Shown here piece after piece: positions 1 to 13,615 of a stretch of DNA of 41,751 bases. The number at the start of each line of letters is the position of its first letter. Positions within the stretch are counted from its first letter, which is position 1. A program made the position numbers and the translations under genes. Under the pieces are notes generated by a model. The model saw only the letters and a program-made list of their open reading frames with translations. It had not been told where the DNA came from and made no database searches. The stretch spans positions 1 through 41,751 of the forward strand of contig JAFNIQ010000011.1 of assembly GCA_017601395.1 (NCBI GenBank), written 5' to 3'. This stretch comes from Candidatus Brockarchaeota archaeon. Lineage in GTDB: Archaea; Thermoproteota; EX4484-205; JAAOZP01.

Positions 1-721
1 TGATTTCAGACACCTCTCCAGTGTCAACCCTTTTAACCCTTACTCCTTCCACGCGTTCCCCTCCCAGAATCTCCTCCACCACGCTGTTCCATACGAACTC
101 TATCTTTGGGTTGCTGAATGCCCTTTCCTGCAGTATCTTTGTTGCCCTAAGCTCGCTTCTCCTATGAATAACCTTAACTTTCTCCGCGAACTTTGTTAGG
201 AAGAGCGCTTCCTCCATTGCCGAGTCTCCGCCTCCCACGACCACCACAGTCCTGTCTCTGAAGAACGCCCCGTCGCAAACAGCGCAGTTTGAAACTCCTT
301 TCCCCCTCAATCTTTCTTCACCCTTTACGCCAAGCTCCTTGGGAGAGGCTCCTGTCGCGATTATAACTGCATGACTCTTGTAAGCAACCCCACCAGCAAC
401 TACTTTGAAAGGCCTCCCGGAGAAATCTGCGCTCTCCGCGTCTTCGAAAATCATCTCAGCTCCGAATCGTTGAGCCTGCTTCAACATATTATTCATAAGG
501 TCTGGCCCGAGTAACCCCTCCGGGAAACCCGGATAGTTCTCCACCAGAGACGTCAACATTAACTGGCCGCCCCAAGAGGATCCTGCGATAACGAGGGTTT
601 TCAGCCTAGCTCTGCCGGTGTATATCGCTGCAGTTAAACCAGCGGGTCCTGAGCCTATGATTATAACATCATACGTCTCGCCTGCTGGCTTTGATCCTAG
701 TACTAGAGGAAGGCTGCTCAT
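1..721 (-). CDS. trxB: Thioredoxin reductase (FAD/NAD(P)-dependent), C-terminus cut off by the window edge
   Basis: Hand translation of the minus strand from ATG at 721: MSSLPLVLGSKPAGETYDVIIIGSGPAGLTAAIYTGRARLKTLVIAG..., with the redox motif SNCAVCDGA and a second nucleotide-binding motif VVVGGGDSAMEEA. Absent from the ORF track because it runs off the edge. Confidence 0.93.
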   Translation of the reverse strand, partial: MSSLPLVLGSKPAGETYDVIIIGSGPAGLTAAIYTGRARLKTLVIAGSSWGGQLMLTSLVENYPGFPEGLLGPDLMNNMLKQAQRFGAEMIFEDAESADFSGRPFKVVAGGVAYKSHAVIIATGASPKELGVKGEERLRGKGVSNCAVCDGAFFRDRTVVVVGGGDSAMEEALFLTKFAEKVKVIHRRSELRATKILQERAFSNPKIEFVWNSVVEEILGGERVEGVRVKRVDTGEVSEI

Positions 722-771
722 ACTCCTCTGTTAACCAGTCTAAAATAAAAAGCTTTTCCAAACAAATGGTG

Positions 772-1080
772 CTAAACGCTTCCAACAGCCTTCTTCAAAG
801 ACTCGACCTTATCCTTCATACTTCTCTCCACATCCCTCCTATCATCTATTTTGACGATTGTTACGGCACGTTTAACACCGTGTTTGAAAACAGCCTCATG
901 CGCGACCCTTACCGCTTTCAAAGCCTCCTCAACACTCTGGGCCTCGAAAACGGTGCACATAGGGGTCAACTCATACTTAACCCCAATGCTTTCAAGCTCT
1001 CTTATTGCGTGAGCAAGTATTCTTGAAAGGCTTGTCCCCTCTCCAACCGGGACTATGCTGAACTCTACTACAACCACCAT
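772..1080 (-). CDS. MTH1187/UPF0045-family thiamine-binding-like protein
   Basis: 102 aa, MVVVVEFSIVPVGEGTSLSRILAHAIRELESIGVKYELTPMCTVFEA..., typical small ferredoxin-like fold pattern of this family. Confidence 0.85.
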   Translation of the reverse strand: MVVVVEFSIVPVGEGTSLSRILAHAIRELESIGVKYELTPMCTVFEAQSVEEALKAVRVAHEAVFKHGVKRAVTIVKIDDRRDVERSMKDKVESLKKAVGSV

Positions 1081-1237
1081 TTTTTCAAAATAAGTTAGTC
1101 CAGGGGCGGATAAGTTTTTCGCAATTCAAGGCTTTACGAACCTGTTTCAAAGCCTATTAGGCCTCAACAGCTGACAACAATCCCTTCCTCCAAGCCTGAG
1201 AATCAATCCTTTCTGTTTGACCAAAGGGGTGCCTGGT

Positions 1238-1293
1238 TACAATATGCCCCCATATATACTTGCCGCATATTTCCCCTCAGGGACTCGAAAAAG
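1238..1293. repeat. Direct repeat copy 1 (left boundary of the 7.2 kb block)
   Basis: TACAATATGCCCCCATATATACTTGCCGCATATTTCCCCTCAGGGACTCGAAAAAG. Matches 8441-8498 except for a short CCCCC versus CCCCTCC difference. Confidence 0.97.
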
Positions 1294-1377
1294 CTAGATT
1301 TGTTCTCAGAAAGGCGAGAAGGGTAAATTGGATTTTGATTCCAAAAAACACAAATATTGCTCTCTCATCTCCACCTG

Positions 1378-2031
1378 TTATCTTGATCGCCGCTTGGCCT
1401 TCTTAACCTCTATCCCCTTGCTTATCAGGAATTCGTTCATCATCTCCTCGTTTATGAACATCTCCCTAGCATCGGCGATTGCATCCACTCTTTTCATGAT
1501 CTCGTTGATCGTTTGTTCCTCATCCATCCCCGCCGAGTTGAAGGCAGTTTCGAAACCGGATTCGTAATCTATATCGAATCTCGTTTCAAAACCATATTTG
1601 TTGCTTATCCTCTTGGCCACTTCAGTGCCCCACATGTGCTTTTTGGCATAATATGCGATGCTCCTCTCCATTTTCAAGTACTTCTCGTACCTTCCCTGCC
1701 TGAAGTCCTCGATTATCCCCTCCTCTTCCTCGAGTTCCTCCTTATTGATCTTTTCTCTCTCTTCTTCGGTCCTAGCCCTCTCATACCTTCGCCTATATTT
1801 CTTGCTATATAGGTAATCCGATATTTCGCTACGGGTGTGCTCGGGACCAGCATCAACTATAACCCTCCCATCTTCGTATGCTGTGATAGAGATGTCGTAA
1901 ACACGACGTGACCTAACAATTATAAACCACTTCTCTGTGAGCGCAGGGCTAATTAGTTCGACTTTCTCACGTTCAAGCTTAAATCTCTCGGCCAGTAGGT
2001 TCCTCAACTTCTCCACGATGCTTTCGCTCAT
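1378..2031 (-). CDS. Hypothetical charged cytosolic protein, 217 aa; possible partner/immunity protein of the upstream giant protein
   Basis: ORF starts in the ATGA overlap with the stop of the 2028-6770 gene. No signal peptide or TM; highly charged. Confidence 0.8.
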   Translation of the reverse strand: MSESIVEKLRNLLAERFKLEREKVELISPALTEKWFIIVRSRRVYDISITAYEDGRVIVDAGPEHTRSEISDYLYSKKYRRRYERARTEEEREKINKEELEEEEGIIEDFRQGRYEKYLKMERSIAYYAKKHMWGTEVAKRISNKYGFETRFDIDYESGFETAFNSAGMDEEQTINEIMKRVDAIADAREMFINEEMMNEFLISKGIEVKKAKRRSR

Positions 2032-5000
2032 CCCGCTAGTTCACCCCTCGTATAGACTTCTATGAGCGGAGGTATGTCCGGTTCGCCGGCGAGGGCCCGT
2101 ACCGGATCATACGAGAAACCTATTGCGACGCCATACTGAACATCCTTATATTCATCGAGCTTAATATGCTCCTTAAGGTCCGTATTCTTTACATCATCAC
2201 ATAGCTTTTTCAAATCTCCTCCCCTTACTGTTGACTCCATCTCTATTATTGCTATTGTGTCGCCACTCTTAAATACCACTTTACCATTAACCACAATGTC
2301 CTTTAGGGCGAATATTTTACCATCGGGTTTCCTTTTTCCACCAATGTGTTGGAAATTCACGGTATCCCTAACCCTAAGGACTTCTAGCGGTATCCCGGTT
2401 TTCTTGGAAAACTCCGCGAGGATCATCTCTCGATAATCTATCCCCCTGTATCCAAGGATCACGATACGCTCCCCTGCTATACCTACCTGAGTTTTCACTT
2501 TGCTCAGATCATCGGCTTCGATTACTTGGCGGAGATAAGAGGATGTCTCATCATCTATCAGGACTATCCTTATGTACCGTATTTCGCTTGCACCATCGGG
2601 TACATGAGCTCCAAATCTATCAGTTCCACAGTATGCCATTTCGCCGTTATCATACTCCAAGATGACACCATACTTGCTCCCAATGTCTCTCTCAAGCTCC
2701 TTCAAGGCGTTATAGCCCAGCAACCTGAATAACTTCCTTTTCAATCCAACACATTTCTGGCCTTTTTCCAAGGGTGCCAGGTAGGAACGCTTGCCTGTCT
2801 GCTCATTGAGAGACTTAAAGTTGAAGCTATACTCAGCTAGTTTCGGTTTATCCTCTATGTCATCAAGATATCCTATCCTCATTAAATCTAACATACTATC
2901 TAGCTCAATTCTTTTAACGAGATAAGAGTTCCCTCCAATCCTGATCCTAACTTCTCTATCATCATAGAAGAAAATAACAAGGTTGTTGCCTCCTATGTCC
3001 TTGCCTTCTAACTCCGCGTGGACATGGATCCTTCCTCCCCAAATATCCGTATCCAGCTCAAACTTGAAACTCTTCCCACCGATCTTCATCTCGTTTTTGA
3101 AGAGATCAAGCTTTATTTCTATTCCGCCAACTGAGAATTCTCTTGGGAAGAAGAGCCTGTAGTCGAGAAACTCAGCCTTAGTCACTAAAATCTCTACCTC
3201 ATCACCCCCTATTTCATTCAACACTTGATCAACCTGATGCTCCGGTATACCCACACTTTTTGATCCCCTACTCTTAACCGGAAACTCCATCACCCCTTTC
3301 TTCTCCCCGCACTCCCAGTAGATCCTCGCCACATACGTCCCCGGACTAAGCTTATTGTCCTTCCCCATATTGAGAGCCCGATCCTCTCCCCTCTTCAGCG
3401 TAATCCTATGGGGCTCTCGAAACTCGAATACCTTTATTCCGGCGAGGAGTTCCTTCAGCCCGTCCGGCTTCTCGAGTATGCCTCCTATTTCCTTCATTCC
3501 AACCCCTGATGCGAGGAGCTTCTCCAAGCACCCGAGCTCATCGGAGCCTAACTTAGCCAGCTTCGGCGCTAGCTTAATGACCGCGTACTCAACCTCATTG
3601 CCTTCAGCGTTAAAAATCGAGCGTAACAGCTCGTCTACGCATCTCTTGCTTTTTTCACTGATGTTCTCTATCTCCTGGATGAACTTGTCCCAGGCCTCAT
3701 CGCTTAGCCTGCATTTTCCATACGCTCGGAGCAAGCCCAGAAAGGCTTCCTCGCTCAATCCAAGCTTGCCAGAAACATCCAGAGCGTCATCTAGGAATCT
3801 CCCGGTGGATTCAACCAGCGAGCTCAGCGATTCCTCATCATCCTTAATCCTATTCAGGTATTCTTTGAAATCACCGCTCTCTCCAGAGATCGCCAGTGAG
3901 GCGGCAATCCCCCTTGCCGTAAGCTTTCCAGCTATGATTCCAATATCCCATAATGGCGGGGTTATCCAGTTGTAGACTCCCTTCAAAAATTCCTTTATCC
4001 GTCCCGCGCGCGAAAGCAGCATCGGCCCATTGCTGAGGAACTTGTAGTAGATGCCAACGTAGGTGGCAAGCGATAGCGCTGACCCCACCAGCCTTCCTAA
4101 GGCCTTACCCTTCTCATACTCTCTCGCATCTTCATTACCAAAAGTTACTAGCAAATCCCTTACCGTCACGTCAGCGAGGAGGTCTAGCGCTGTGTCGCCA
4201 ACTATGTATCCTTGTTTCTCTTTAATCTTGCTCCTGAGTCCCTGGAATAAGTAATACGCGTTAAAGTATCCTGCATAAGCAGCCCTCTGGGAAAAGCCGT
4301 CGAGCTCTCCAGCTACTTCATCCATCTTTTTGTAGGCTGAGTAGGCCTCGAGGATCTCCCTGATGTTAGATGCTACCCCGACGGCGAAAAGGCTCGGAAT
4401 TACTGCTGAGGTTATAAGGTTCTTAACATATGCCAGGAGGGAGCCGCCCTTCGTCGGCACTGCTAGTATGACCATTATCGTCGCTGTTATGATTATCCCT
4501 GAAAGCTTCTCCTTTATTCCATCCCAGAAGCCTCTCCAGAACTCCGAGACCTCGCCTGTAGCATGGACCCGAAGGAATACGACGATCCTGCCCTGATATT
4601 TCAAGTAGATTAAGACCGGATGGCTTGCGCTCTTACGTTGAATGAGGCTCAGAGGGATTGAGCCATGGGCCGGAATGCTGAGAGCAATGTTCTCCGGCAG
4701 ATTCTCAGCTATTGGCCATTGGAGGATTTCGAGCTCGTAAACGATGTCCCATGCAGCGTAGTTCTTGACTAAAACTCCTTTGACTAAGTCCCCCTGATAC
4801 ATAAGTGGACGGTATACTAGCTCTATAGTTTTATCGTGCAGAACGCTGGCAATGGCTTTGTCCAGGTCCCATTTCTTAACCCCTGTATCCTCATACTTAT
4901 AGTCGTGATCCTCCCAGCTGCTATACTTAAGCTTCTCGTAAAAATCGTCGTTAACCGTCACGATTTCGGACTGGTTGAGAACTTCTTCCTTAACCAGCTT

Positions 5001-6770
5001 AATCTCATAGCTTGGTGGAATCTTACTGGGTTCTAGTCTTTCATCTTCATTTATGTGGAAGAGCTTCTTAACCTCGTCCTCCCTCAAAACCCTCTCATAA
5101 AGGAAGCCCGGCTTAACGTCAAGGAGCATATACCTTACTTCGGGGGCTTCGATGCTGCTCGCATTACCTAAAGTCAGCGTGAAGCCCTTGGGGGAAATGG
5201 GGATTAAGCTTAATCCACTGAAGAAACTTATAGATGAAGGCGCCAGGCAATTCTTCATCAGGTAGAGCTTAACGTGTGTCGCGCACCGGTAGCCGGGGAC
5301 GAAGACCCTCTTGGTTTCCTCATAGCCTTTAAACTCTATGAGGTATGTCCTCCACTCCTCCGGGGTTACAAAGTTTGTTGTCGAGATCGTCGTGAGTGAA
5401 GTACTGGTATGCCTCTTGCCCTCAAGATCGTGATAGACTGCTGTGACGTTGACTTTAGCGATCGGTGAGAGTAGCTTGGTTATCACGCTTCCCCGCCAGG
5501 TGTGCCAGACTCTTCCAACCCCCAGCTCTTTCTCCTCGACATCCCCGGTTACGAGCAGCTTAACACCCGTAGCCTCCTGCCCGCCGCTGTTGACCAGGGT
5601 TATTGTGAGGTTCGCAAACTTGGCTAGGGCCTCGGCTTCAACTTCAACCCTCAGCCTTGGGGCTTCTGGCAACACGGTAACAACGTAGGTTACTGTTTTC
5701 CCGCCGTTCCAGAACACTACATCTAGATTCTTAGGTTCAACGATGGCGAAGTAGATAGTAACCTGGTAAACTCCTGGTCTCTTAGCTCTAAGGTATAGAT
5801 GTGATGCTGGGCATCCTGAGCCGTATGGGAAGCCTACTGGAGGAGGGGCCCAAGCTTCAAACGCGTCTTCGTCGGAGAACCTCGCACCGAGCAAGACCCT
5901 GAAATCTCGAGCCTCCTGGGGGTTCCTTATCCGAGCGCTTATCGTTATTACATCCCCTATTTTGACCCTTGTCGGAGAGATCGAGGTGTCTACAACGAGG
6001 GGATCGTGGGCTGGGAGCAGAACTCTGAACTCGCTTACCTGAGATATCACAGCCTCACGTGTTTCCTCGAAGTGCCCGGGCACTGCGACGATGAAGCTCT
6101 CGAAGCCGAAGCTGCCTTGAGTCACGTTAGAGAAGAGCCCGATGTTTATCCTAGCGGTCTTGTTAAACACTTCCCCGGTCTTCAGGTCTAGGAACGTGAA
6201 AGTGTAAGCGTCAGGGTCAACGACCCTAACCAGATATGTCCTCCTCTTAGGATACCTGCGGAGGACGTAGAAAAGGCTTGTTCCGTTGCTCTCATACTTT
6301 ATTGAGCTTACGTCAACGTCTCTCCCCCGACCATCAACCACCTTATAGGGAATTTCTACGGATACGCTTCCATCGTCGCTTCGAATGATTCGAGCATCAT
6401 CATACTTCAGGATTATCGTGTAGTTCTTAAGCTCGTAGCCTATCCGCATTGGCAACCTCAGGGTATCATTAGCATCGATTATGGCCTGGCGAATCTCACT
6501 GTCAGAGCAGCCCGTCGAGACTAGTTGGGCTATGAAGAGCCAGAGCCTCTTAGCGAGCTCGACTGGAAACCCCTCGGGTATGATGAAGTTGGCCTCGGTC
6601 ACCGAGCCGCTCGGTATCCTCCCCTTCTCAAGCTCCTCCTCTATCCTCCTAAGGGTAGCTACCGCATCCGTCTCCTCCCCATGAGCTTGAAGGCGGAGTA
6701 TTGCATCGAAGTGCGAGGTCAGTATAAGGATCGAGATGATTATAGCCAGTGCCTTTCTAAGCATTCTCAC
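2028..6770 (-). CDS. Giant secreted/membrane multidomain protein, 1580 aa, with a C-terminal domain resembling a PD-(D/E)XK nuclease
   Basis: N-terminal hydrophobic signal (MRMLRKALAIIISILILTSHFDAILRLQAHG), extracellular beta-rich repeats, central hydrophobic segments (GIIITATIMVILAVP; LITSAVIPSLFAVGVAS), helical region, then beta-rich C-terminus with KRKPDGKIF...DTIAIIEMESTVRGGDLKKLCDDV. Confidence 0.88.
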   Translation of the reverse strand: MRMLRKALAIIISILILTSHFDAILRLQAHGEETDAVATLRRIEEELEKGRIPSGSVTEANFIIPEGFPVELAKRLWLFIAQLVSTGCSDSEIRQAIIDANDTLRLPMRIGYELKNYTIILKYDDARIIRSDDGSVSVEIPYKVVDGRGRDVDVSSIKYESNGTSLFYVLRRYPKRRTYLVRVVDPDAYTFTFLDLKTGEVFNKTARINIGLFSNVTQGSFGFESFIVAVPGHFEETREAVISQVSEFRVLLPAHDPLVVDTSISPTRVKIGDVITISARIRNPQEARDFRVLLGARFSDEDAFEAWAPPPVGFPYGSGCPASHLYLRAKRPGVYQVTIYFAIVEPKNLDVVFWNGGKTVTYVVTVLPEAPRLRVEVEAEALAKFANLTITLVNSGGQEATGVKLLVTGDVEEKELGVGRVWHTWRGSVITKLLSPIAKVNVTAVYHDLEGKRHTSTSLTTISTTNFVTPEEWRTYLIEFKGYEETKRVFVPGYRCATHVKLYLMKNCLAPSSISFFSGLSLIPISPKGFTLTLGNASSIEAPEVRYMLLDVKPGFLYERVLREDEVKKLFHINEDERLEPSKIPPSYEIKLVKEEVLNQSEIVTVNDDFYEKLKYSSWEDHDYKYEDTGVKKWDLDKAIASVLHDKTIELVYRPLMYQGDLVKGVLVKNYAAWDIVYELEILQWPIAENLPENIALSIPAHGSIPLSLIQRKSASHPVLIYLKYQGRIVVFLRVHATGEVSEFWRGFWDGIKEKLSGIIITATIMVILAVPTKGGSLLAYVKNLITSAVIPSLFAVGVASNIREILEAYSAYKKMDEVAGELDGFSQRAAYAGYFNAYYLFQGLRSKIKEKQGYIVGDTALDLLADVTVRDLLVTFGNEDAREYEKGKALGRLVGSALSLATYVGIYYKFLSNGPMLLSRAGRIKEFLKGVYNWITPPLWDIGIIAGKLTARGIAASLAISGESGDFKEYLNRIKDDEESLSSLVESTGRFLDDALDVSGKLGLSEEAFLGLLRAYGKCRLSDEAWDKFIQEIENISEKSKRCVDELLRSIFNAEGNEVEYAVIKLAPKLAKLGSDELGCLEKLLASGVGMKEIGGILEKPDGLKELLAGIKVFEFREPHRITLKRGEDRALNMGKDNKLSPGTYVARIYWECGEKKGVMEFPVKSRGSKSVGIPEHQVDQVLNEIGGDEVEILVTKAEFLDYRLFFPREFSVGGIEIKLDLFKNEMKIGGKSFKFELDTDIWGGRIHVHAELEGKDIGGNNLVIFFYDDREVRIRIGGNSYLVKRIELDSMLDLMRIGYLDDIEDKPKLAEYSFNFKSLNEQTGKRSYLAPLEKGQKCVGLKRKLFRLLGYNALKELERDIGSKYGVILEYDNGEMAYCGTDRFGAHVPDGASEIRYIRIVLIDDETSSYLRQVIEADDLSKVKTQVGIAGERIVILGYRGIDYREMILAEFSKKTGIPLEVLRVRDTVNFQHIGGKRKPDGKIFALKDIVVNGKVVFKSGDTIAIIEMESTVRGGDLKKLCDDVKNTDLKEHIKLDEYKDVQYGVAIGFSYDPVRALAGEPDIPPLIEVYTRGELAG

Positions 6771-7944
6771 CTACCTCCTCTCCACCTGTAGAAGCTGAAC
6801 TTGCATGGGATTTCCTCCCTAGGACAATGAACAAAAGGATCATGGAGAGACCTAAAAATCCCATTAAGAGCCTCATTAGGTTAAGCTCTTGAGCCAGCTT
6901 TTCAACTTCCCCAGCCTCCTTCAGCTGCTTCTTCTCATAAGCCTCAAGCGAGGCCTTCATAATCGTTATATCGGCCTCCTTACCTTCAAGCATATGTCTC
7001 AAGGTTTCCTGCTCCCTAGAGTTGTTCAGCATCGCCCTCAGAAACCAATTCTCATATCTAAGCCGGAGGTATTCTGAGAAGAGGGTTTCGCCGAGCTTAA
7101 TGACTAGGTTCGTGGTTGAGTTTAACGTCTTAGATCTCAGTACGAGCCCAGCCGGCTCCTTGAGGCCCGAAAGCTTTGGCCAATTAACCGTCACCTCGTA
7201 CAGCTCTCCCCTATGCATTACTTCACAATCCTCCGTTAGGAAACCCGTCTGAAGAGCTGCACTAACTTCAGTGACGTTGCTCGTAGCGATTACTCTGAAA
7301 AGGATCCTCAAGGATTCCTTCTCAAAGAAAATGGAATCGAGGATTATCTCGGCGAGGTCGGTTGCCTCTTCCCCCTTAACCCTTATCATCGCATTTCCCC
7401 CATCGAGCTTCCTCATCTCTTGTCTGTAACAATCGACGAGGAAGCTTCTGTCAGAGATCGTGTCGTTGTCGATGGCGATCCAGAGCTGAGTCTCGTTCGG
7501 CTCCAGCATGGGGTAAACGCAGACATAGAAGTTGCCCTCCACGATAACGCCCGGTAATGTAACCTTGGCCCAATCCAAGGTTGCATTCTTAAAGTAGTTA
7601 GGGATAGGAATGGAGACCTTGAAGACTACATTAAAATCATTATCCCTCACCTCTATGATGAAAGGTTTCTCGCCCTTAACTACAGCGAAGCCGTAGATGA
7701 GGACGGCTGTTATCCTCCACCTAAGGGCGGGAGGGGTGAATTTAACGGCTATCCCATTAGGATAGTAGTCGCTCCAGAAGCATTCCGCGCCACCATCGTC
7801 GTAACGTAACAATAGGCTTGAATCAGGATAAGCGTGTGAAGTTTGGGCTAACACCAATAGGATTGAAAGCACGGCTTTACCCACCGTTTGAGCTGCGGAT
7901 TTTACCTCTCCTCCAACTCCTAATTTATCAGCTTCGCTCCTCAT
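6757..7944 (-). CDS. Secreted protein with coiled coil and C-terminal TM anchor, 395 aa
   Basis: N-terminal hydrophobic segment AVLSILLVLAQTSHAYP, beta-rich ectodomain, coiled coil (EYLRLRYENWFLRAMLNNSREQETLRHMLEGKEAD...), C-terminal TM LLMGFLGLSMILLFIVLGRKS. Overlaps the next gene by 14 bp. Confidence 0.85.
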   Translation of the reverse strand: MRSEADKLGVGGEVKSAAQTVGKAVLSILLVLAQTSHAYPDSSLLLRYDDGGAECFWSDYYPNGIAVKFTPPALRWRITAVLIYGFAVVKGEKPFIIEVRDNDFNVVFKVSIPIPNYFKNATLDWAKVTLPGVIVEGNFYVCVYPMLEPNETQLWIAIDNDTISDRSFLVDCYRQEMRKLDGGNAMIRVKGEEATDLAEIILDSIFFEKESLRILFRVIATSNVTEVSAALQTGFLTEDCEVMHRGELYEVTVNWPKLSGLKEPAGLVLRSKTLNSTTNLVIKLGETLFSEYLRLRYENWFLRAMLNNSREQETLRHMLEGKEADITIMKASLEAYEKKQLKEAGEVEKLAQELNLMRLLMGFLGLSMILLFIVLGRKSHASSASTGGEEVGENA

Positions 7945-7967
7945 ATCATTAGAGGAGGCTTGAGGAT

Positions 7968-7980
7968 GTATTTTTATAGC
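7968..7980 (-). promoter_or_regulatory. TATA-box-like element for the three-gene operon
   Basis: Reverse complement GCTATAAAAATAC about 30 nt upstream of the ATG at 7944, consistent with a leaderless or near-leaderless archaeal promoter. Confidence 0.55.
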
Positions 7981-8000
7981 ATGAGGTAAGCGAAAATTTC

Positions 8001-8015
8001 CGCTGACAGTCAGCG
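8001..8015. repeat. Perfect inverted repeat CGCTGAC-A-GTCAGCG upstream of the operon
   Basis: Direct reading. Also bracketed by GGTAA (7985-7989) and TTACC (8021-8025). Confidence 0.85.
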
Positions 8016-8167
8016 AGAATTTACCGACGGAAGATTTATATCACTGTCCTCAGCAGGCTTGGCGAGTGCCATTCGAGCGCGAATTCTCGGGTGAATCAGG
8101 CGGATAAAGGCCACTAAAAGCGTGGGGGAAGCGATGATGGCTCACCGGAATTCTTCACTCACCAGCG

Positions 8168-8206
8168 GGTAAGCATCCGTTTACCCCAGGTAAATATCTG
8201 CTTACC
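8168..8206. promoter_or_regulatory. Twin dyad GGTAA-N8-TTACC, CCA, GGTAA-N8-TTACC (operator-like)
   Basis: GGTAAGCATCCGTTTACC CCA GGTAAATATCTGCTTACC: two 18-bp palindromic units which together form a larger palindrome. Confidence 0.7.
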
Positions 8207-8440
8207 ATATTCGGCCATTCACATTGCTGGGTTTTAAACCCTAACGCCCTTCTCCTAAATCCTTGAAAGGCACTTGGCGCTTTAGGAGACGTTGCTAAAC
8301 GAAGGCGAGAAACTAGCGCGCTATTGGATATCCGTAGCATTCCACATAAGGCGCGCGCTAAGCGGCTTCCAGTACGTAGCGAAGGCCAAAGAATCCTATC
8401 TTAGGGAAAAGAACATTAAGAAGTGAATAAGCCAGTATGC

Positions 8441-8498
8441 TACAATATGCCCCTCCATATATACTTGCCGCATATTTCCCCTCAGGGACTCGAAAAAG
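8441..8498. repeat. Direct repeat copy 2 (right boundary of the 7.2 kb block)
   Basis: TACAATATGCCCCTCCATATATACTTGCCGCATATTTCCCCTCAGGGACTCGAAAAAG, near-identical to 1238-1293. Confidence 0.97.
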
Positions 8499-8533
8499 TT
8501 GAAATAGCCCTTGCTTGGGATGAGGGCGTTAAG

Positions 8534-9733
8534 TTGAACCCTAGGCTTAAGGCTGCTCGCAGAGCTTTAGAGATAGAGGGCGAGAGCTCCTTCCTAGTGC
8601 TGGGTAATGCGAAGATGCTTGAAACACAGGGCAGGAGGATAATCCATCTCGAAATAGGTGAACCAGATTTTACAACCCCGGCTAATATAAGGGAGGCTGC
8701 GATAAGGGCGTTGAAGGAGGGGGAGACCCATTATACTCCTACGCCCGGCATGCTGGAGCTGAGGAGGGCGATAGCTGAGAAGACTGCTCAGGATTTCGGT
8801 GTTGAAGTATGTTTCGAAAACGTTTCAGTAACGCTAGGCTCCAAGGAGGCTATTTTCGCAGCTTTAGCCTCGATAGTGGAGGAGGGGGACGAGGTGATCT
8901 ACCCGAATCCAGGTTACCAGGCTTACGCGAGTGGGGTAATGTTCTTTGGAGGAAAACCAGTGCCCGTCAGGCTGAGGGAGGAGGATGAGTTTAGAATGAC
9001 TCCCGACGAGGTTAACCGGCTGGTTTCAGACAGGACTAAGGCGATAATCATAAATTCTCCCCAGAACCCGACTGGGGCGGTTTTAAGCAGGGATGACGTT
9101 AAGGGTATTGTGGAGATAGCTAAGGATGCTGGAGCATACGTTATTAGCGACGAGATCTACAGGTACATAATATACGATGGTTTGAAACACTATTCGCCTC
9201 TTCAGTTCGACGAGAATCTGGAGAACACTATAGTGGTAGACGGTTTCTCGAAATACTATGCTATGACGGGGTGGAGGCTGGGTTACGTGATTACACCGGA
9301 GCATTTAACAGCCCCTCTCCAGCTTGTTTTAAACCTGGTAACAGCATGCCCGTCTTCTTTCATCCAGATAGGGGGTTTAGAGGCTTTGAGAAACGGTTCT
9401 AATGCTGTCCGAGAAATGGTTGAACAGTATGCTATTAGAAGGGGGGTTGTCATTGAAGAGGTGTCTAAAATGAGTGGTGTTCACATGGTTAGGCCTAGAG
9501 GAGCCTTCTACGGGTTTCTCAACGTTAAGGAAATAATCGGTAGGGCTGGAATTAACAGTTTGAAACTGGCCTCTATTCTGCTTGAGAAGTACGGGGTTGC
9601 AGTGTTGCATGGATCAGCCATGGGGTCTTTCGGAGAAGGCTATGTTAGGATAAGCTATGCTAACTCTGTTGAAAACATAAGGAACGGGTTAAGAATAATG
9701 AGTAAAGCTTTTAACGAGATAGCCGGGTTCTAA
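8534..9733 (+). CDS. Pyridoxal-phosphate aminotransferase, class I/II (aspartate aminotransferase-like)
   Basis: HLEIGEPDFTTP, NSPQNPTGAV, SDEIYRYIIYDG, VDGFSKYYAMTGWRLGY. The ORF opens at 8423, but those first codons lie in or next to the direct repeat. The start given is a TTG just before the recognisable LNPRLKAARRALEIEG. Confidence 0.93.
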   Translation: MNPRLKAARRALEIEGESSFLVLGNAKMLETQGRRIIHLEIGEPDFTTPANIREAAIRALKEGETHYTPTPGMLELRRAIAEKTAQDFGVEVCFENVSVTLGSKEAIFAALASIVEEGDEVIYPNPGYQAYASGVMFFGGKPVPVRLREEDEFRMTPDEVNRLVSDRTKAIIINSPQNPTGAVLSRDDVKGIVEIAKDAGAYVISDEIYRYIIYDGLKHYSPLQFDENLENTIVVDGFSKYYAMTGWRLGYVITPEHLTAPLQLVLNLVTACPSSFIQIGGLEALRNGSNAVREMVEQYAIRRGVVIEEVSKMSGVHMVRPRGAFYGFLNVKEIIGRAGINSLKLASILLEKYGVAVLHGSAMGSFGEGYVRISYANSVENIRNGLRIMSKAFNEIAGF

Positions 9734-9742
9734 GCCTGTTTC

Positions 9743-10420
9743 CTACTCTAGCCTTGGAATGCTTTTCAGCATTCTCTCCAAATATATCTTGGCCAGTCTA
9801 ACGTAACGCCTATCGTTTAACAGAGCCATCAGCCTTAGACCACCGCCCGATTTCATCAGGATAACACTATTCTTCCCGGTGTACTCGATTTCCTCTATCT
9901 CCCCTATCTTTAAAACACTGCCGTAGCTTTCGAACAGTTCAAACTGCTCGCCTATGAAGGCGGCTAAAATGTCTTCATCCATGTCGATGCGTGAGCCGAA
10001 GCTTAAACACGTGACACCGTCAGGCAGTAGGACGCTTATTGAACTTATCGATCCCTTGGATTGCGAAATGCAGTTTTGCATGGCGCTTTCAACAACTTTA
10101 ACCCATTCGAAGGCTTTCTCATCCAGCATTTTCTCAGTCTCCTCGCTTGTAACGATGTCTTTCTGAATAGGCTTCGAAATGGTTAGCATTGGCTCCTCTT
10201 TCTTAACGGCTGCTTCCATAGGGGTGTTTTTCTCAACTGCTTGCAACGGCTTCTTCTCATCCACATCTTTTACATCCCGTTTAGAAACAGCCATTCTGTA
10301 GCGCGCTATGATTTTATCGAAGTCTGTTTTATCATCTTCAGCATCCTGCTCTCTTTCCACCATGGCTGGTAAACAATTGTAGACCTCTCTTATAAATTTT
10401 GCAATTATTCTTTCTTTCAC
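9743..10420 (-). CDS. Roadblock/LC7-like domain protein (tentative)
   Basis: 225 aa with low-complexity N-terminus and C-terminal SISSISVLLPDGVTCLSFGSRIDMDEDILAAFIGEQFELFESYGSVLKIGEIEEIEYTGKNSVILMKSGGGLRLMALLND, matching the alternating pattern of roadblock domains. Confidence 0.55.
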   Translation of the reverse strand: MKERIIAKFIREVYNCLPAMVEREQDAEDDKTDFDKIIARYRMAVSKRDVKDVDEKKPLQAVEKNTPMEAAVKKEEPMLTISKPIQKDIVTSEETEKMLDEKAFEWVKVVESAMQNCISQSKGSISSISVLLPDGVTCLSFGSRIDMDEDILAAFIGEQFELFESYGSVLKIGEIEEIEYTGKNSVILMKSGGGLRLMALLNDRRYVRLAKIYLERMLKSIPRLE

Positions 10421-10445
10421 TTTTTTACATACACGTTCTTATATA

Positions 10446-10480
10446 GTTCAGAACAGTTCAGAATGGTTCATTATGGTTTA
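10446..10480. promoter_or_regulatory. Phased tandem array GTTCAGAACA/GTTCAGAATG/GTTCATTATG/GTTTA (10-bp period)
   Basis: Exact 10-bp spacing of four GTTYA units, directly upstream of a TATA-like element (minus strand CTATATAAG) for the 9743-10420 gene. Confidence 0.65.
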
Positions 10481-10880
10481 TCTGCCTCCGTTATTTGTTC
10501 CAGTCGAAAGCTAGCTCATGCGTTAAAGTTTTTTCGAAAGATACGCGTAGTTTAGAATAATATTTAACCGGTTTCTCATAACTTTCTTTTCGATTCCTGT
10601 CTGTTTAAACTCCTACATACATATGGTGATGAGCATGAGTCGGTAGGAGAAAAAGCGATTTATAATTAAAAAAATTAAAAGTGTTTTAATCGACAACGAA
10701 GCGTAGCGGCAACTCGCCATATTCCTCCATTATCTATCCCAGGAATTCTGTTTCAGGTTATACTTGATATCTTATCGCCATGGATTCAAACAATAAAATG
10801 TTACTCTGGGGTTGCTTATCTAAAAGTTTTTTAATGAGCATGATAAACCGTTAAGTAAAAACAGTAAAGGGCTATTTACC

Positions 10881-11867
10881 TTGAACACGGCTGTTGAGAC
10901 TGTAAATCTGACTAAGTATTTCAAAGGGGACGGTGGGAAGGGGAGGATTGTGGCAGTCGACCATGTAAACCTTTCCATCAGGGAGGGTGAGTTTTTCGGT
11001 CTCTTGGGGCCAAACGGTGCTGGTAAAACAACTCTGATAAAAATTCTTTGCACACTGGTGATTCCTGACGGGGGCACTGCGAGGGTGGCTGGTTTCGACG
11101 TCGTCAAGGATGCTGAGAAAGTTAGGGAGTACATAGGCTGGCTGCACGGGGAAACGGGTGGGAGAGCCCTCTACTGGAGGCTTTCAGCAAGAGACAACCT
11201 AAGGTTCTACGCCTATCTGCAGAACATTCCTACAGACGTAGCCAGAAAAAGGATAGATGCCCTGCTCGAGTTCTTCGAGTTAGACAAGGATGCTGACAGG
11301 CTTGTGAAGGATTTCTCCACGGGCATGAAGATGAGAGTAATGCTTGCTAGGACGCTTCTTTCAAACGCGCCAATACTGTTGATGGATGAGCCGACTGTTG
11401 GGCTTGACGCTACTGGGGCAATAGAGACACGTAGGCTGCTTCAGGCTCTTTGCAAGGAGCTCCGTAAAACCATAGTTTTCACAACCCATAATATTTTTGA
11501 GGCTGAGAGGCTTTGCGACAGGATCGCTGTGATGAACCGGGGAAAAATTATTGCGGTTGACACGCCGCTCCGGCTGAGCGAAATAACGAGGAAGTACAGG
11601 GGTGTCGAGGTAAGGTTCCGCGGTTCCTCTGAAGAAGCGGTTAGGATCCTGGAGAGACTAGAGTTTGTGAAGAGGATTATGAGTGTTCAGCCCGAGGAGG
11701 ACTACACTGTCATAAGGGCTGAGGTTAAAGACGAGGAGCAAGCGTTGTCAGAAATTCCTAAGGCGTTCGGCACCAACGGGTTGAAAACCATAGGAGTTCA
11801 AATCGCTCTTCCAAGTCTTGAAGAAGTATTCTTAAACCTGACTGGTGGGGAGCATGAATCAGCCTGA
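10881..11867 (+). CDS. ABC transporter ATP-binding protein, DrrA/ABC-2 type
   Basis: Walker A GPNGAGKTT, signature FSTGMKMRV, Walker B ILLMDEP, H-loop TTHN. Confidence 0.95.
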   Translation: MNTAVETVNLTKYFKGDGGKGRIVAVDHVNLSIREGEFFGLLGPNGAGKTTLIKILCTLVIPDGGTARVAGFDVVKDAEKVREYIGWLHGETGGRALYWRLSARDNLRFYAYLQNIPTDVARKRIDALLEFFELDKDADRLVKDFSTGMKMRVMLARTLLSNAPILLMDEPTVGLDATGAIETRRLLQALCKELRKTIVFTTHNIFEAERLCDRIAVMNRGKIIAVDTPLRLSEITRKYRGVEVRFRGSSEEAVRILERLEFVKRIMSVQPEEDYTVIRAEVKDEEQALSEIPKAFGTNGLKTIGVQIALPSLEEVFLNLTGGEHESA

Positions 11868-12732
11868 AATCCTCCAGTTATTCAGGGTTGAGGAGAAGCG
11901 GAGCAAGTCTAGTTTAAGACAGCTCTTCGCAGTGGTTTGGGCCCAGCTTAAGATGATGCTCGCCTATAGGTCTTGGCTAGTGATGGATCTTTTAAGCACC
12001 CTTGCATCTGTAGTCATGTACTACTTCGTCGGCCTGCAGGTCGACCCGCACCAGCTTTCGCGAAGCGGCTGGGGAACTAGTTACCTCGCCTTCTCCCTGG
12101 TTGGAGTCGCAACCTCAAACTATCTTTGGGCATGCTTAACAAGGCTGAGCCATTCTATCCAGCATGAAATAAGAGGAGGAACTCTTGAAACAATCGCGGT
12201 AACCCCAATAAACATGCTCATGTTCTTCATAGGCCTAACGGCACGCGGATACCTAGTTAGCCTCATCTACTTGGTGGGGGTGTTCGCTGTCGGGGTTTAT
12301 GGACTTGGTGCAAAACTCTCGTTTACCCCTCAGTCGCTGTTCGTGTTCATAATCCTGTTTGTATTGATGCTTGTTTCAAACCAAGCACTAGGGTTAGTGG
12401 CTGCGGGAATAATAATGGTTTACAAGAGGGGTGACCCGCTAGTATTCATACTTGCAGCCGTCAACGAGTTTCTCGCCGGCGTCCTATATCCGTTGGAGCT
12501 GCTTAAACGCTTTCCAGCCTTACAGGTTCTATCAATGCTCTTCCCCTATACCTATGCCCTAGACGGTATGAGGAGGGTGCTGATACTGGGTGCCTCGGTT
12601 TTTGACGTGAACGTGTTGACCGACATCCTGGTTCTAGGTGTTTTCAGCATGCTGCTTGTCCCGCTAGGTTTAAAGATGCTGGGATGGGGTTATAATAGGA
12701 TAAGGAGGGAAGGGACTACTTCATCCTACTAG
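11854..12732 (+). CDS. ABC-2 type transporter permease
   Basis: Hydrophobic six-helix pattern with LAGVLYPLELL...LFPYTYALDGMRR. Start taken as ATG 11854 (MNQPEILQ). Confidence 0.9.
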   Translation: MNQPEILQLFRVEEKRSKSSLRQLFAVVWAQLKMMLAYRSWLVMDLLSTLASVVMYYFVGLQVDPHQLSRSGWGTSYLAFSLVGVATSNYLWACLTRLSHSIQHEIRGGTLETIAVTPINMLMFFIGLTARGYLVSLIYLVGVFAVGVYGLGAKLSFTPQSLFVFIILFVLMLVSNQALGLVAAGIIMVYKRGDPLVFILAAVNEFLAGVLYPLELLKRFPALQVLSMLFPYTYALDGMRRVLILGASVFDVNVLTDILVLGVFSMLLVPLGLKMLGWGYNRIRREGTTSSY

Positions 12733-12742
12733 GTGGTTAGAT

Positions 12743-13615
12743 TTGAAGGTTGAAGACATTGTTAAATACTTGGCGGAAAACATTCCGCGGGGAGGGGTTG
12801 GGCCCTTTGAGAAAGCTGTTGCCTTCATAATTAGGGATTTTAAAATCTGGTGGACGTATAAGCTTTGGATAACGCTTGATATTCTGAGCTCACTGACCTT
12901 TGTGGCAACATACTACTTCGTATCGATGATCATTACTCCGCAAGCGTTGATTGAAGCAGGGTATGCTGCAGACTTCCTCACCTTTTCAGTCATAGGCATC
13001 TCCGTGCAGCATTACGTTTTCACCTCCGTTTCAAGCCTTTCAGACGCGATAAGGGAGGAACAGTGGAACGGCACTATGGAGACAATACTTTCTTCAACCA
13101 CGAGCTTCAGGGTTTTTCTCCTAGGAGAGTCTGCTTTCAGGTTCATAATCGGCTCCTACTTCCTGCTTGCTTCACTCGGCATGGGGGTGCTTCTTGGTAT
13201 AAGGCTTGTCTTAAACCCTGAATCTATTCTCGCCGCATTCGTGTTAACCATACTGCTGGTGGCGAGCCACATGGTTATCGGGGTTCTCGGGGCTGCGATG
13301 ATACTCAAGCTTAAGCAGGGTGATCCCATAGTCTGGGCTTTCTCATGGTTAACCCAGCTTTTCTCAGGAGTCCTCTACCCCTTGGGGCTGCTGCCCGACT
13401 GGCTTAAATGGATTGGAAACGCGTTCCCGCTAACATACTCTCTAGACGGATTGAGAAGGTGTTTGATGAATGGTGAAGGATTAGACAGCCCCATGATAAT
13501 GGAGAATACTTTAAAGCTTATACTCTTCATAGTGGTCGTACTGCCTTTTTCACTATGGTTTTTCAAAAAGTCTTACGACTCGACGAGGAGGGAAGGAGCC
13601 CTAGGCCAGTACTAA
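12743..13615 (+). CDS. ABC-2 type transporter permease
   Basis: FSGVLYPLGLLPDWLKWIGNAFPLTYSLDGLRR. Paralogous to the preceding permease. Confidence 0.9.
   Translation: MKVEDIVKYLAENIPRGGVGPFEKAVAFIIRDFKIWWTYKLWITLDILSSLTFVATYYFVSMIITPQALIEAGYAADFLTFSVIGISVQHYVFTSVSSLSDAIREEQWNGTMETILSSTTSFRVFLLGESAFRFIIGSYFLLASLGMGVLLGIRLVLNPESILAAFVLTILLVASHMVIGVLGAAMILKLKQGDPIVWAFSWLTQLFSGVLYPLGLLPDWLKWIGNAFPLTYSLDGLRRCLMNGEGLDSPMIMENTLKLILFIVVVLPFSLWFFKKSYDSTRREGALGQY

What the first reader, a model, noticed from the sequence alone, without database searches (positions are those of the whole stretch)
1238..8498. Near-identical ~57 bp direct repeats bracket the three-gene cassette
Seen: TACAATATGCCCC(Y)CATATATACTTGCCGCATATTTCCCCTCAGGGACTCGAAAAAG occurs at 1238-1293 and 8441-8498, identical except for a 2-bp indel, with unrelated flanks. 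The cassette plus non-coding DNA lies exactly between them, and the right copy abuts the aminotransferase. Inference: this is the footprint of an insertion or site-specific integration (attL/attR-like) or a long target duplication; recombination between copies would excise ~7.2 kb. No integrase or transposase is visible inside.
Basis: partly seen in the sequence, partly recalled or inferred. Interest (0 to 1): 0.7.

Follow-up and report, generated by a model that had tools for sequence, protein, structure and literature searches.

The report
Toxin-like gene cassette with duplicated target
The matching ~57-base repeats are a duplicated piece of the host's own DNA, left when a 7.1-kilobase toxin-like three-gene cassette, one of many scattered through this group of uncultured hot-spring archaea, was inserted beside an aminotransferase gene without any visible transposase.

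Summary
In detail: 1238-1293 and 8441-8498 are one 58-bp sequence, identical except for a 2-bp gap, and found nowhere else in this genome or in 60 relatives. Three same-genus genomes carry the empty site: TrxR, thiamine-binding gene, ONE copy of the sequence, aminotransferase. The repeat is therefore duplicated target DNA (the aminotransferase promoter region), not an end of the insert. The cassette (A 395 aa, B 1580 aa, C 217 aa) belongs to a multicopy, genus-restricted family. B has a conserved secreted/membrane body and swapped C-termini; the window's C-terminus models as a PD-(D/E)XK nuclease, and C models as a secretion-chaperone-like partner. The layout is polymorphic-toxin-like. Five other copies are bracketed by different, unrelated target duplications: pheS/pheT junction, tRNA-Asn, rpl2 end, a nitroreductase start, and the end of a 247-aa gene. 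Sizes run from about 43 to 145 bp, with one complex 220-bp case; 0 of 688 control intervals showed this. Targets share no core and inserts share no ends, which argues against site-specific integration or classical transposition. [quoted passage not shown] A foreign-looking tract beside one copy suggests capture of incoming DNA by recombination anchored on one flank.

The parts
1238..1293 (.). Left copy of the target duplication (56 bp; has lost 2 bp relative to the right copy and to empty site G003)
   Evidence: contiguous with native TrxR/thiamine-binding side in relatives
8441..8498 (.). Right copy of the target duplication (58 bp, ancestral form); upstream/promoter region of the aminotransferase with a TATA-like CATATATACTT
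   Evidence: contiguous with native aminotransferase side in G003, G004, G007. Promoter role inferred from sequence
1294..8440 (.). Inserted segment, 7147 bp, absent from the empty sites
6757..7944 (-). Gene A, 395 aa: N-terminal signal-like segment, soluble domain, coiled coil, C-terminal transmembrane segment (read from sequence)
   Evidence: conserved in all fuller copies; no Pfam or NCBIfam match
2028..6770 (-). Gene B, 1580 aa: conserved secreted/membrane body (about residues 1-1090) and polymorphic C-terminus
   Evidence: no Pfam, NCBIfam or PADLOC match
2031..2600 (-). C-terminal domain of B (residues 1391-1580), predicted PD-(D/E)XK nuclease fold; this copy reads E-x-E (IIEMES) where many relatives read E-x-K
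   Evidence: pLDDT 91.5; top PDB match FokI E 2.9e-3, then mostly PD-(D/E)XK-fold nucleases and the nuclease-like Prp8; weak FokI_cleav_dom E 0.06, PDDEXK_9 E 0.0035 in one relative
1378..2031 (-). Gene C, 217 aa, overlaps the end of B; partner (immunity or chaperone) candidate; predicted fold resembles type III secretion chaperones
   Evidence: pLDDT 90.9; 3cxj E 1.6e-3 prob 1.00; ExsC E 3e-2 prob 0.97
7969..8002 (-). Conserved cassette promoter (GGAAATTTTCGCTTACCTCATGCTATAAAAATA)
   Evidence: near-identical upstream of A in C1, C20, C105, C147; promoter role inferred
8168..8206 (.). Two adjacent 18-bp palindromes GGTAA-N8-TTACC, candidate operator
   Evidence: in 8 genomes found only at cassette-family promoters (C1, C53, C105, G003:C52); reversed-pattern control 0
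8260..8316 (+). Remnant of the N-terminus of the divergent ArsR-like HTH regulator gene of the full-length locus
   Evidence: DNA homology to L029/L030/C1 ends at about 8316
772..1080 (-). Left native neighbour, thiamine-binding (PF01910) protein
8516..9733 (+). Right native neighbour, class I/II aminotransferase (conserved part)

Best explanation
The repeats are a 58-bp target duplication left by the insertion of a 7147-bp polymorphic-toxin-like cassette upstream of the aminotransferase gene in an uncultured archaeon (same-genus MAGs are deposited as Brockarchaeota, Thaumarchaeota or Crenarchaeota). SHOWN: the empty site has one copy; the cassette is one of many family members; at least five other members are bracketed by their own unrelated target duplications of about 43 to 145 bp (one complex, 220 bp with an inverted 123-bp block); inserts lack common ends. 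INFERRED: the cassette has no recombinase of its own and is captured from DNA of other strains by illegitimate recombination, probably with one flank anchored by homology and the other joined upstream of the anchor, which duplicates the stretch in between and keeps the target gene intact. INFERRED: A-B-C encode a surface-exposed system whose B C-terminus is a swappable nuclease effector and whose C is its cognate partner. The confidence given is for insertion with target duplication of a mobile family; for the one-sided-homology joining step alone it is about 0.45.
For: Empty sites in G003, G004, G007. Repeat unique to this site. Multicopy family in 7 of 8 genus genomes and none of 53 other relatives tested; a scan of about 85,000 species genomes found only same-genus MAGs. 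Other target duplications: pheS/pheT, adjacent in the seven other genus genomes; 247-aa gene, uninterrupted in six relatives; tRNA-Asn, 90 bp at 97.8%, intact in G005; rpl2 end, differing by gaps only; nitroreductase start, 68 bp, one copy in three relatives. Control 0/688. No shared core or ends. 5' homology ends at different points per copy. Foreign-looking material: C147 gene end 20/238 differences to G005 versus 4/450 further in, p = 8e-7; C20 copy carries 196 bp of a gene 85% identical to the native one; the nearest cassette copies in this genome are only about 80% identical although the two target copies have no substitutions, so the donor is not among the copies seen.
Against: The joining mechanism is not observed; at the window locus no close relative with the left flank exists, so a foreign tract cannot be tested there. 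The C102 tract is partly non-coding and may simply evolve faster. Several cassette copies show no flanking repeat (L033, L034, L098-L100), through age or another route. All genomes are draft MAGs; the tRNA-Asn duplication is split over two contigs, and the tandem rpl2 repeat spans an N. Nuclease and chaperone folds rest on models with weak PDB matches (E about 1e-3), and this copy has E-x-E in place of E-x-K.
Confidence: 0.8

Rival explanations
1. Site-specific integration: an integrase acting in trans recombines a cassette circle with chromosomal att sites, and the repeats are attL/attR.
For: Direct repeats at both borders; one copy sits at the 3' end of tRNA-Asn, a classic integration site.
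Against: Six bracketed members use six unrelated target sequences of different length; longest shared words are 6-9 bp. No integrase in the insert. The 5' ends differ between copies.
Confidence: 0.05
2. Transposition by a transposase (own or in trans) with an unusually long staggered cut, giving fixed-end inserts and long target site duplications.
For: Clean target duplication of 58 bp in the window and 59 bp direct at C147, about 54 bp at pheS/pheT.
Against: Lengths also reach 68, 90 and 145 bp; no terminal inverted repeats or shared ends; inverted 123-bp block at C147; no transposase.
Confidence: 0.07
3. Replicative template switching (MMBIR-like): a broken fork copies the cassette from elsewhere and re-enters the target upstream of the exit point, duplicating the stretch in between.
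For: Variable duplication length, arbitrary insert ends, the inverted templated 123-bp block at C147, the extra 103-bp tandem copy at rpl2.
Against: No donor at high identity in the same genome. The foreign-type gene end beside C147 is better explained by recombination with incoming DNA.
Confidence: 0.3
4. The repeat is a duplicated regulatory element (promoter) unrelated to any insertion.
For: The sequence contains the presumed aminotransferase promoter.
Against: Relatives have one copy and no cassette at the same place, with synteny intact on both sides; other copies of the cassette carry different repeats.
Confidence: 0.02

Closest known systems
Insertion with long target duplication (Nobusato et al. 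2000, as described in PMC1643837 and PMC3031569)
   Same: Gene complex inserted between long, variable direct duplications of the target, recognised by comparison with an empty allele; associated with nuclease genes; no transposase; linked inversions are reported for restriction-modification genes, and an inverted block is seen here at C147.
   Different: Described in bacteria (H. pylori) for restriction-modification genes; here an archaeon and a polymorphic-toxin-like cassette, with six independent cases in one family.
Homology-facilitated illegitimate recombination (PMC3240628), a term also used in work on T6SS effector-immunity exchange in Vibrio cholerae (PMC5361080)
   Same: One end homologous, other end illegitimate; would explain the foreign-type tract on one side and orphan partner genes left in arrays.
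   Different: Anchor tract shown at only one coding locus here (C147), not at the window locus; no transformation data for this lineage.
Polymorphic toxin systems, Tox-REase type (PMC3482391)
   Same: Long exported protein with swapped C-terminal nuclease domain, adjacent small partner gene, orphan tail+partner modules, strong copy-to-copy polymorphism.
   Different: No recognised trafficking domain or Pfam family; the 2012 survey reports such systems as absent from most archaeal lineages; toxicity and immunity untested; K of the E-x-K motif missing in this copy.
VARTIG modules of Thermococcales (PMC8416519)
   Same: Archaeal hypervariable large surface protein plus variable downstream genes, compared with polymorphic toxin systems.
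   Different: VARTIG is defined by Ig domains and restricted to Thermococcales; here no Ig-domain match in Pfam, a nuclease-like tail, dispersed copies with target duplications.

Membership tests
Insertion with long target duplication | Empty allele with a single copy of the repeat in a related genome | tested here: met
   G003, G004, G007
Insertion with long target duplication | Duplication longer than transposase-generated ones and variable between cases | tested here: met
   43, 58, 59 (220 complex), 68, 90, 145 bp
Insertion with long target duplication | No mobility enzyme in the inserted segment | tested here: met
Insertion with long target duplication | Insert is a restriction-modification gene complex (usual cargo) | tested here: not met
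   No methyltransferase; B/C are not an RM pair
Integrase-mediated element (attL/attR) | Common att core between insertions | tested here: not met
Integrase-mediated element (attL/attR) | Integrase gene in the element | tested here: not met
DDE transposon / insertion sequence | Fixed ends or terminal inverted repeats | tested here: not met
   (no inverted repeats), variable 5' ends
Polymorphic toxin system | Conserved N-terminal body with polymorphic C-terminal toxin domain | tested here: met
   C-terminal domain fold. Toxicity itself not tested
Polymorphic toxin system | Cognate partner/immunity gene directly downstream and orphan modules | tested here: met
   (C follows the B tail at most nuclease-type copies; orphans L032, L072, L074, L113)
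Polymorphic toxin system | Partner neutralises the toxin | not testable with these tools
   needs experiment; C model resembles secretion chaperones, so a chaperone role is equally open
PD-(D/E)XK nuclease | Fold plus D ... E-x-K catalytic residues | tested here: inconclusive
   Fold predicted with confidence, top PDB matches mostly of that fold but weak; D invariant, E nearly invariant, K present in only some of 16 relatives and E in this copy
VARTIG | Ig domains in the large protein | tested here: not met
   no Pfam match in B

The most novel reading that the evidence does not exclude
The cassette drives its own spread: the DNA-cleaving effector it encodes makes widely staggered breaks, in its own or a neighbour's genome, at which cassette DNA from lysed or mating cells is captured, so that a cell-killing system is at the same time a selfish mobile element without a recombinase.
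Probability: 0.07. Interest if true: 0.88.

Novelty: new variant of a known kind. Interest (0 to 1): 0.62.

Why it matters
Insertion with long target duplication has been inferred mainly for bacterial restriction-modification genes, and its mechanism is open. Here one gene family in one archaeal genus supplies six independent examples, most with empty sites, including a junction with an inverted block and a foreign-type anchor tract, which gives material to separate the candidate mechanisms. It also points to an unannotated, rapidly diversifying polymorphic-toxin-like system in archaea where such systems were thought rare, with a candidate shared operator (paired GGTAA-N8-TTACC) that may place scattered copies under one regulator.

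Tried and rejected
Viral contigs: no relative of gene A. Constant 58-bp duplication, suggested by the first cases (58, 59, about 54): rejected after finding 68, 90 and 145 bp. Common integration core: rejected. Left-end homology (1294-1420) to other copies: nothing beyond chance. Foreign tract at the window locus: no sign, but no close relative holds the left flank. C118/C155 contig overlap of exactly 77 bp: treated as an assembly k-mer overlap, not as a target duplication. Sigma-70-type promoter scan is not informative for archaea. The 2019 survey of archaeal toxins was not held in the library. Searches failed on input form.

Full report
OBSERVATION. The two repeats exist as described: 1238-1293 and 8441-8498, 58 alignment columns with one 2-bp gap and no substitutions. 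The sequence has two copies in the 2.14-Mb genome, both here, and none in 60 related genomes. Control intervals with spacing 1.3-7.1 kb outside cassettes gave 0 of 688 with a direct repeat at E <= 1e-6 (intervals overlap, so they are not fully independent).

EMPTY SITE. The aminotransferase to the right and the thiamine-binding and thioredoxin-reductase-like genes to the left are direct neighbours in G003, G004 and G007. G003 shows it best: window 2-1260 and 8441-12000 map to one continuous stretch that overlaps only in the repeat. Aligned, the relatives have a single copy; left-hand homology runs through the left copy and right-hand homology starts at the first base of the right copy. The right copy keeps two bases (TC) shared with G003 that the left copy lacks. 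So 58 bp of target DNA were duplicated around a 7147-bp insert. The duplicated stretch carries a TATA-like element and lies just upstream of the conserved start of the aminotransferase, so the gene kept its upstream region.

THE CASSETTE IS A FAMILY. Gene B has further full or partial copies in this genome on contigs C105, C147, C118, C20, C54 and C107, and in six of the seven other genomes of the genus, and in none of 53 more distant relatives. A scan of about 85,000 species genomes returned only loci from three same-genus MAGs, deposited as Brockarchaeota DRTY-6.bins.80, Thaumarchaeota SJ3.Bin56 and Crenarchaeota SKW236. A longer form carries an ArsR-like HTH gene, two unknown genes and a RecA/KaiC-like ATPase upstream of A (G003:C52, G006:C184); G000:C1, G005:C17 and G004:C7 keep the upstream genes with degenerate or missing A/B. 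The window copy retains only the promoter, the paired palindromes and a stub of the HTH gene; homology upstream of A stops at different points in different copies (8316 here, about 8206 in C105, 8145 in C20, 8041 in C147), so the inserts have no common 5' end.

WHAT IT ENCODES. The body of B (to about residue 1090) is conserved at 50-80% between close copies, whereas C-termini are replaced wholesale. The window-type tail occurs with a C-type gene at many loci, including orphan tail+C modules and tandem C genes. The tail models at pLDDT 91.5. Its best PDB match is FokI (E 2.9e-3), and most other top matches are PD-(D/E)XK-fold enzymes (MGME1, lambda exonuclease, arenavirus endonuclease, HinP1I) or Prp8, which carries a related fold (own knowledge); each match alone is weak. 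The D is invariant and the E nearly so, but the K of E-x-K is not conserved and is E in the window copy, so activity of this copy is uncertain. C models at pLDDT 90.9 and resembles type III secretion chaperones (ExsC, CesT, SycE) and an uncharacterised archaeal protein. The three proteins match no defence or other known family. 'Polymorphic-toxin-like' is therefore an architectural statement; toxicity and immunity are inferred.

OTHER TARGET DUPLICATIONS. (a) G004:C4: the cassette separates pheS from pheT, adjacent in the seven other genus genomes, with 43 bp clearly duplicated and 54-63 bp by overlap of flank alignments. (b) G000:C147: inserted at the end of a 247-aa gene that is uninterrupted in G005, G003, G006, G004, G007 and G002; 59 bp direct, preceded by a 123-bp block inverted and a 40-bp block direct. 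(c) G000:C54/C102: 90 bp at the end of tRNA-Asn at 97.8%, single in G005:C42. (d) G007:C7: 145 columns at the end of rpl2, differing only by gaps, plus a tandem 103-bp copy across an N; relatives show one match for this stretch. (e) G003:C34: an orphan tail+C module at the start of a nitroreductase gene, 68 bp at 78%, single in G005, G000 and G004. The targets share no word longer than 9 bp and the inserts share no end sequence.

MECHANISM. These facts exclude a shared att core and argue against transposase-defined ends. Two observations point to incoming DNA. At C147 the 238 bp of the gene next to the cassette differ from G005 at 20 positions against 4 in the preceding 450 (p = 8e-7), while the outer part of the displaced copy on the other side matches G005. 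The C20 copy is joined to 196 bp of a gene 85% identical to the native one elsewhere in the genome. A similar tract beside tRNA-Asn (27/350 versus 6/600) is partly non-coding and weaker evidence. In the window the two target copies show no substitutions although the nearest cassette copies in the genome are only about 80% identical, so the donor is not among the copies seen. I favour capture of foreign cassette DNA with homologous recombination on one flank and illegitimate joining on the other (about 0.45), with replicative template switching as main rival (about 0.3). For the window locus itself the joining step cannot be resolved with the data held.

COMPARISON. The pattern matches 'insertion with long target duplication', described for restriction-modification genes in Helicobacter, with variable long duplications and links to inversions (PMC1643837, PMC3031569). 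It differs in host domain and cargo. Homology-facilitated illegitimate recombination is described in PMC3240628, and the term is also used in work on effector-immunity displacement in Vibrio (PMC5361080). Polymorphic toxins with restriction-endonuclease-fold domains are described in PMC3482391, which reports such systems as absent from most archaeal lineages; VARTIG (PMC8416519) is an archaeal analogue but is Ig-based.

SIDE RESULT. A pair of adjacent 18-bp palindromes (GGTAA-N8-TTACC) occurs in the eight genus genomes only upstream of this gene family (G000 C1, C53, C105; G003 C52), with no hit for the reversed control pattern. It may be the operator of the ArsR-like regulator of the full-length locus, acting on scattered copies.

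Noticed in passing
window 8168-8206; G000:C1:31804-31842, G000:C105:1357-1417, G003:C52:71602-71640: Adjacent 18-bp palindromes GGTAA-N8-TTACC found only at promoters of this cassette family in 8 genus genomes; candidate shared operator.
   Followed up: partly
L024 (G000:C147) 12873-13092: Right-hand copy of the duplicated target contains a 123-bp block in inverted orientation, 99% identical to the left copy, between blocks that are only 88% identical.
   Followed up: partly
L026 (G000:C20) 3639-3833: 196-bp fragment of a gene, 85% identical to the native gene at G000:C7, joined to the 5' side of a cassette copy: looks like carried-over donor flank.
   Followed up: partly
G005:C38:1 (L040): The contig of the closest relative starts inside the duplicated 58-bp sequence next to the aminotransferase; the same site may be occupied or repeated there too.
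   Followed up: no
window 8317-8426: Short open stretch ending ...AKAKESYLREKNIKK*, reminiscent of the C-terminus of C-type genes; possible remnant of another partner gene upstream of the HTH stub. Not tested by search.
   Followed up: no
L029:3574-7021, L030:11931-15375, L069:7127-10580: Conserved genes of the full-length locus: two unknown proteins and a RecA/RadB/KaiC-like ATPase, conserved even where A and B have decayed (G000:C1, G004:C7).
   Followed up: partly
L103 (G007:C7) 11508-11714: Tandem 103-bp copies of the rpl2 3' end around an N beside a cassette copy; real extra duplication or scaffolding artefact.
   Followed up: no
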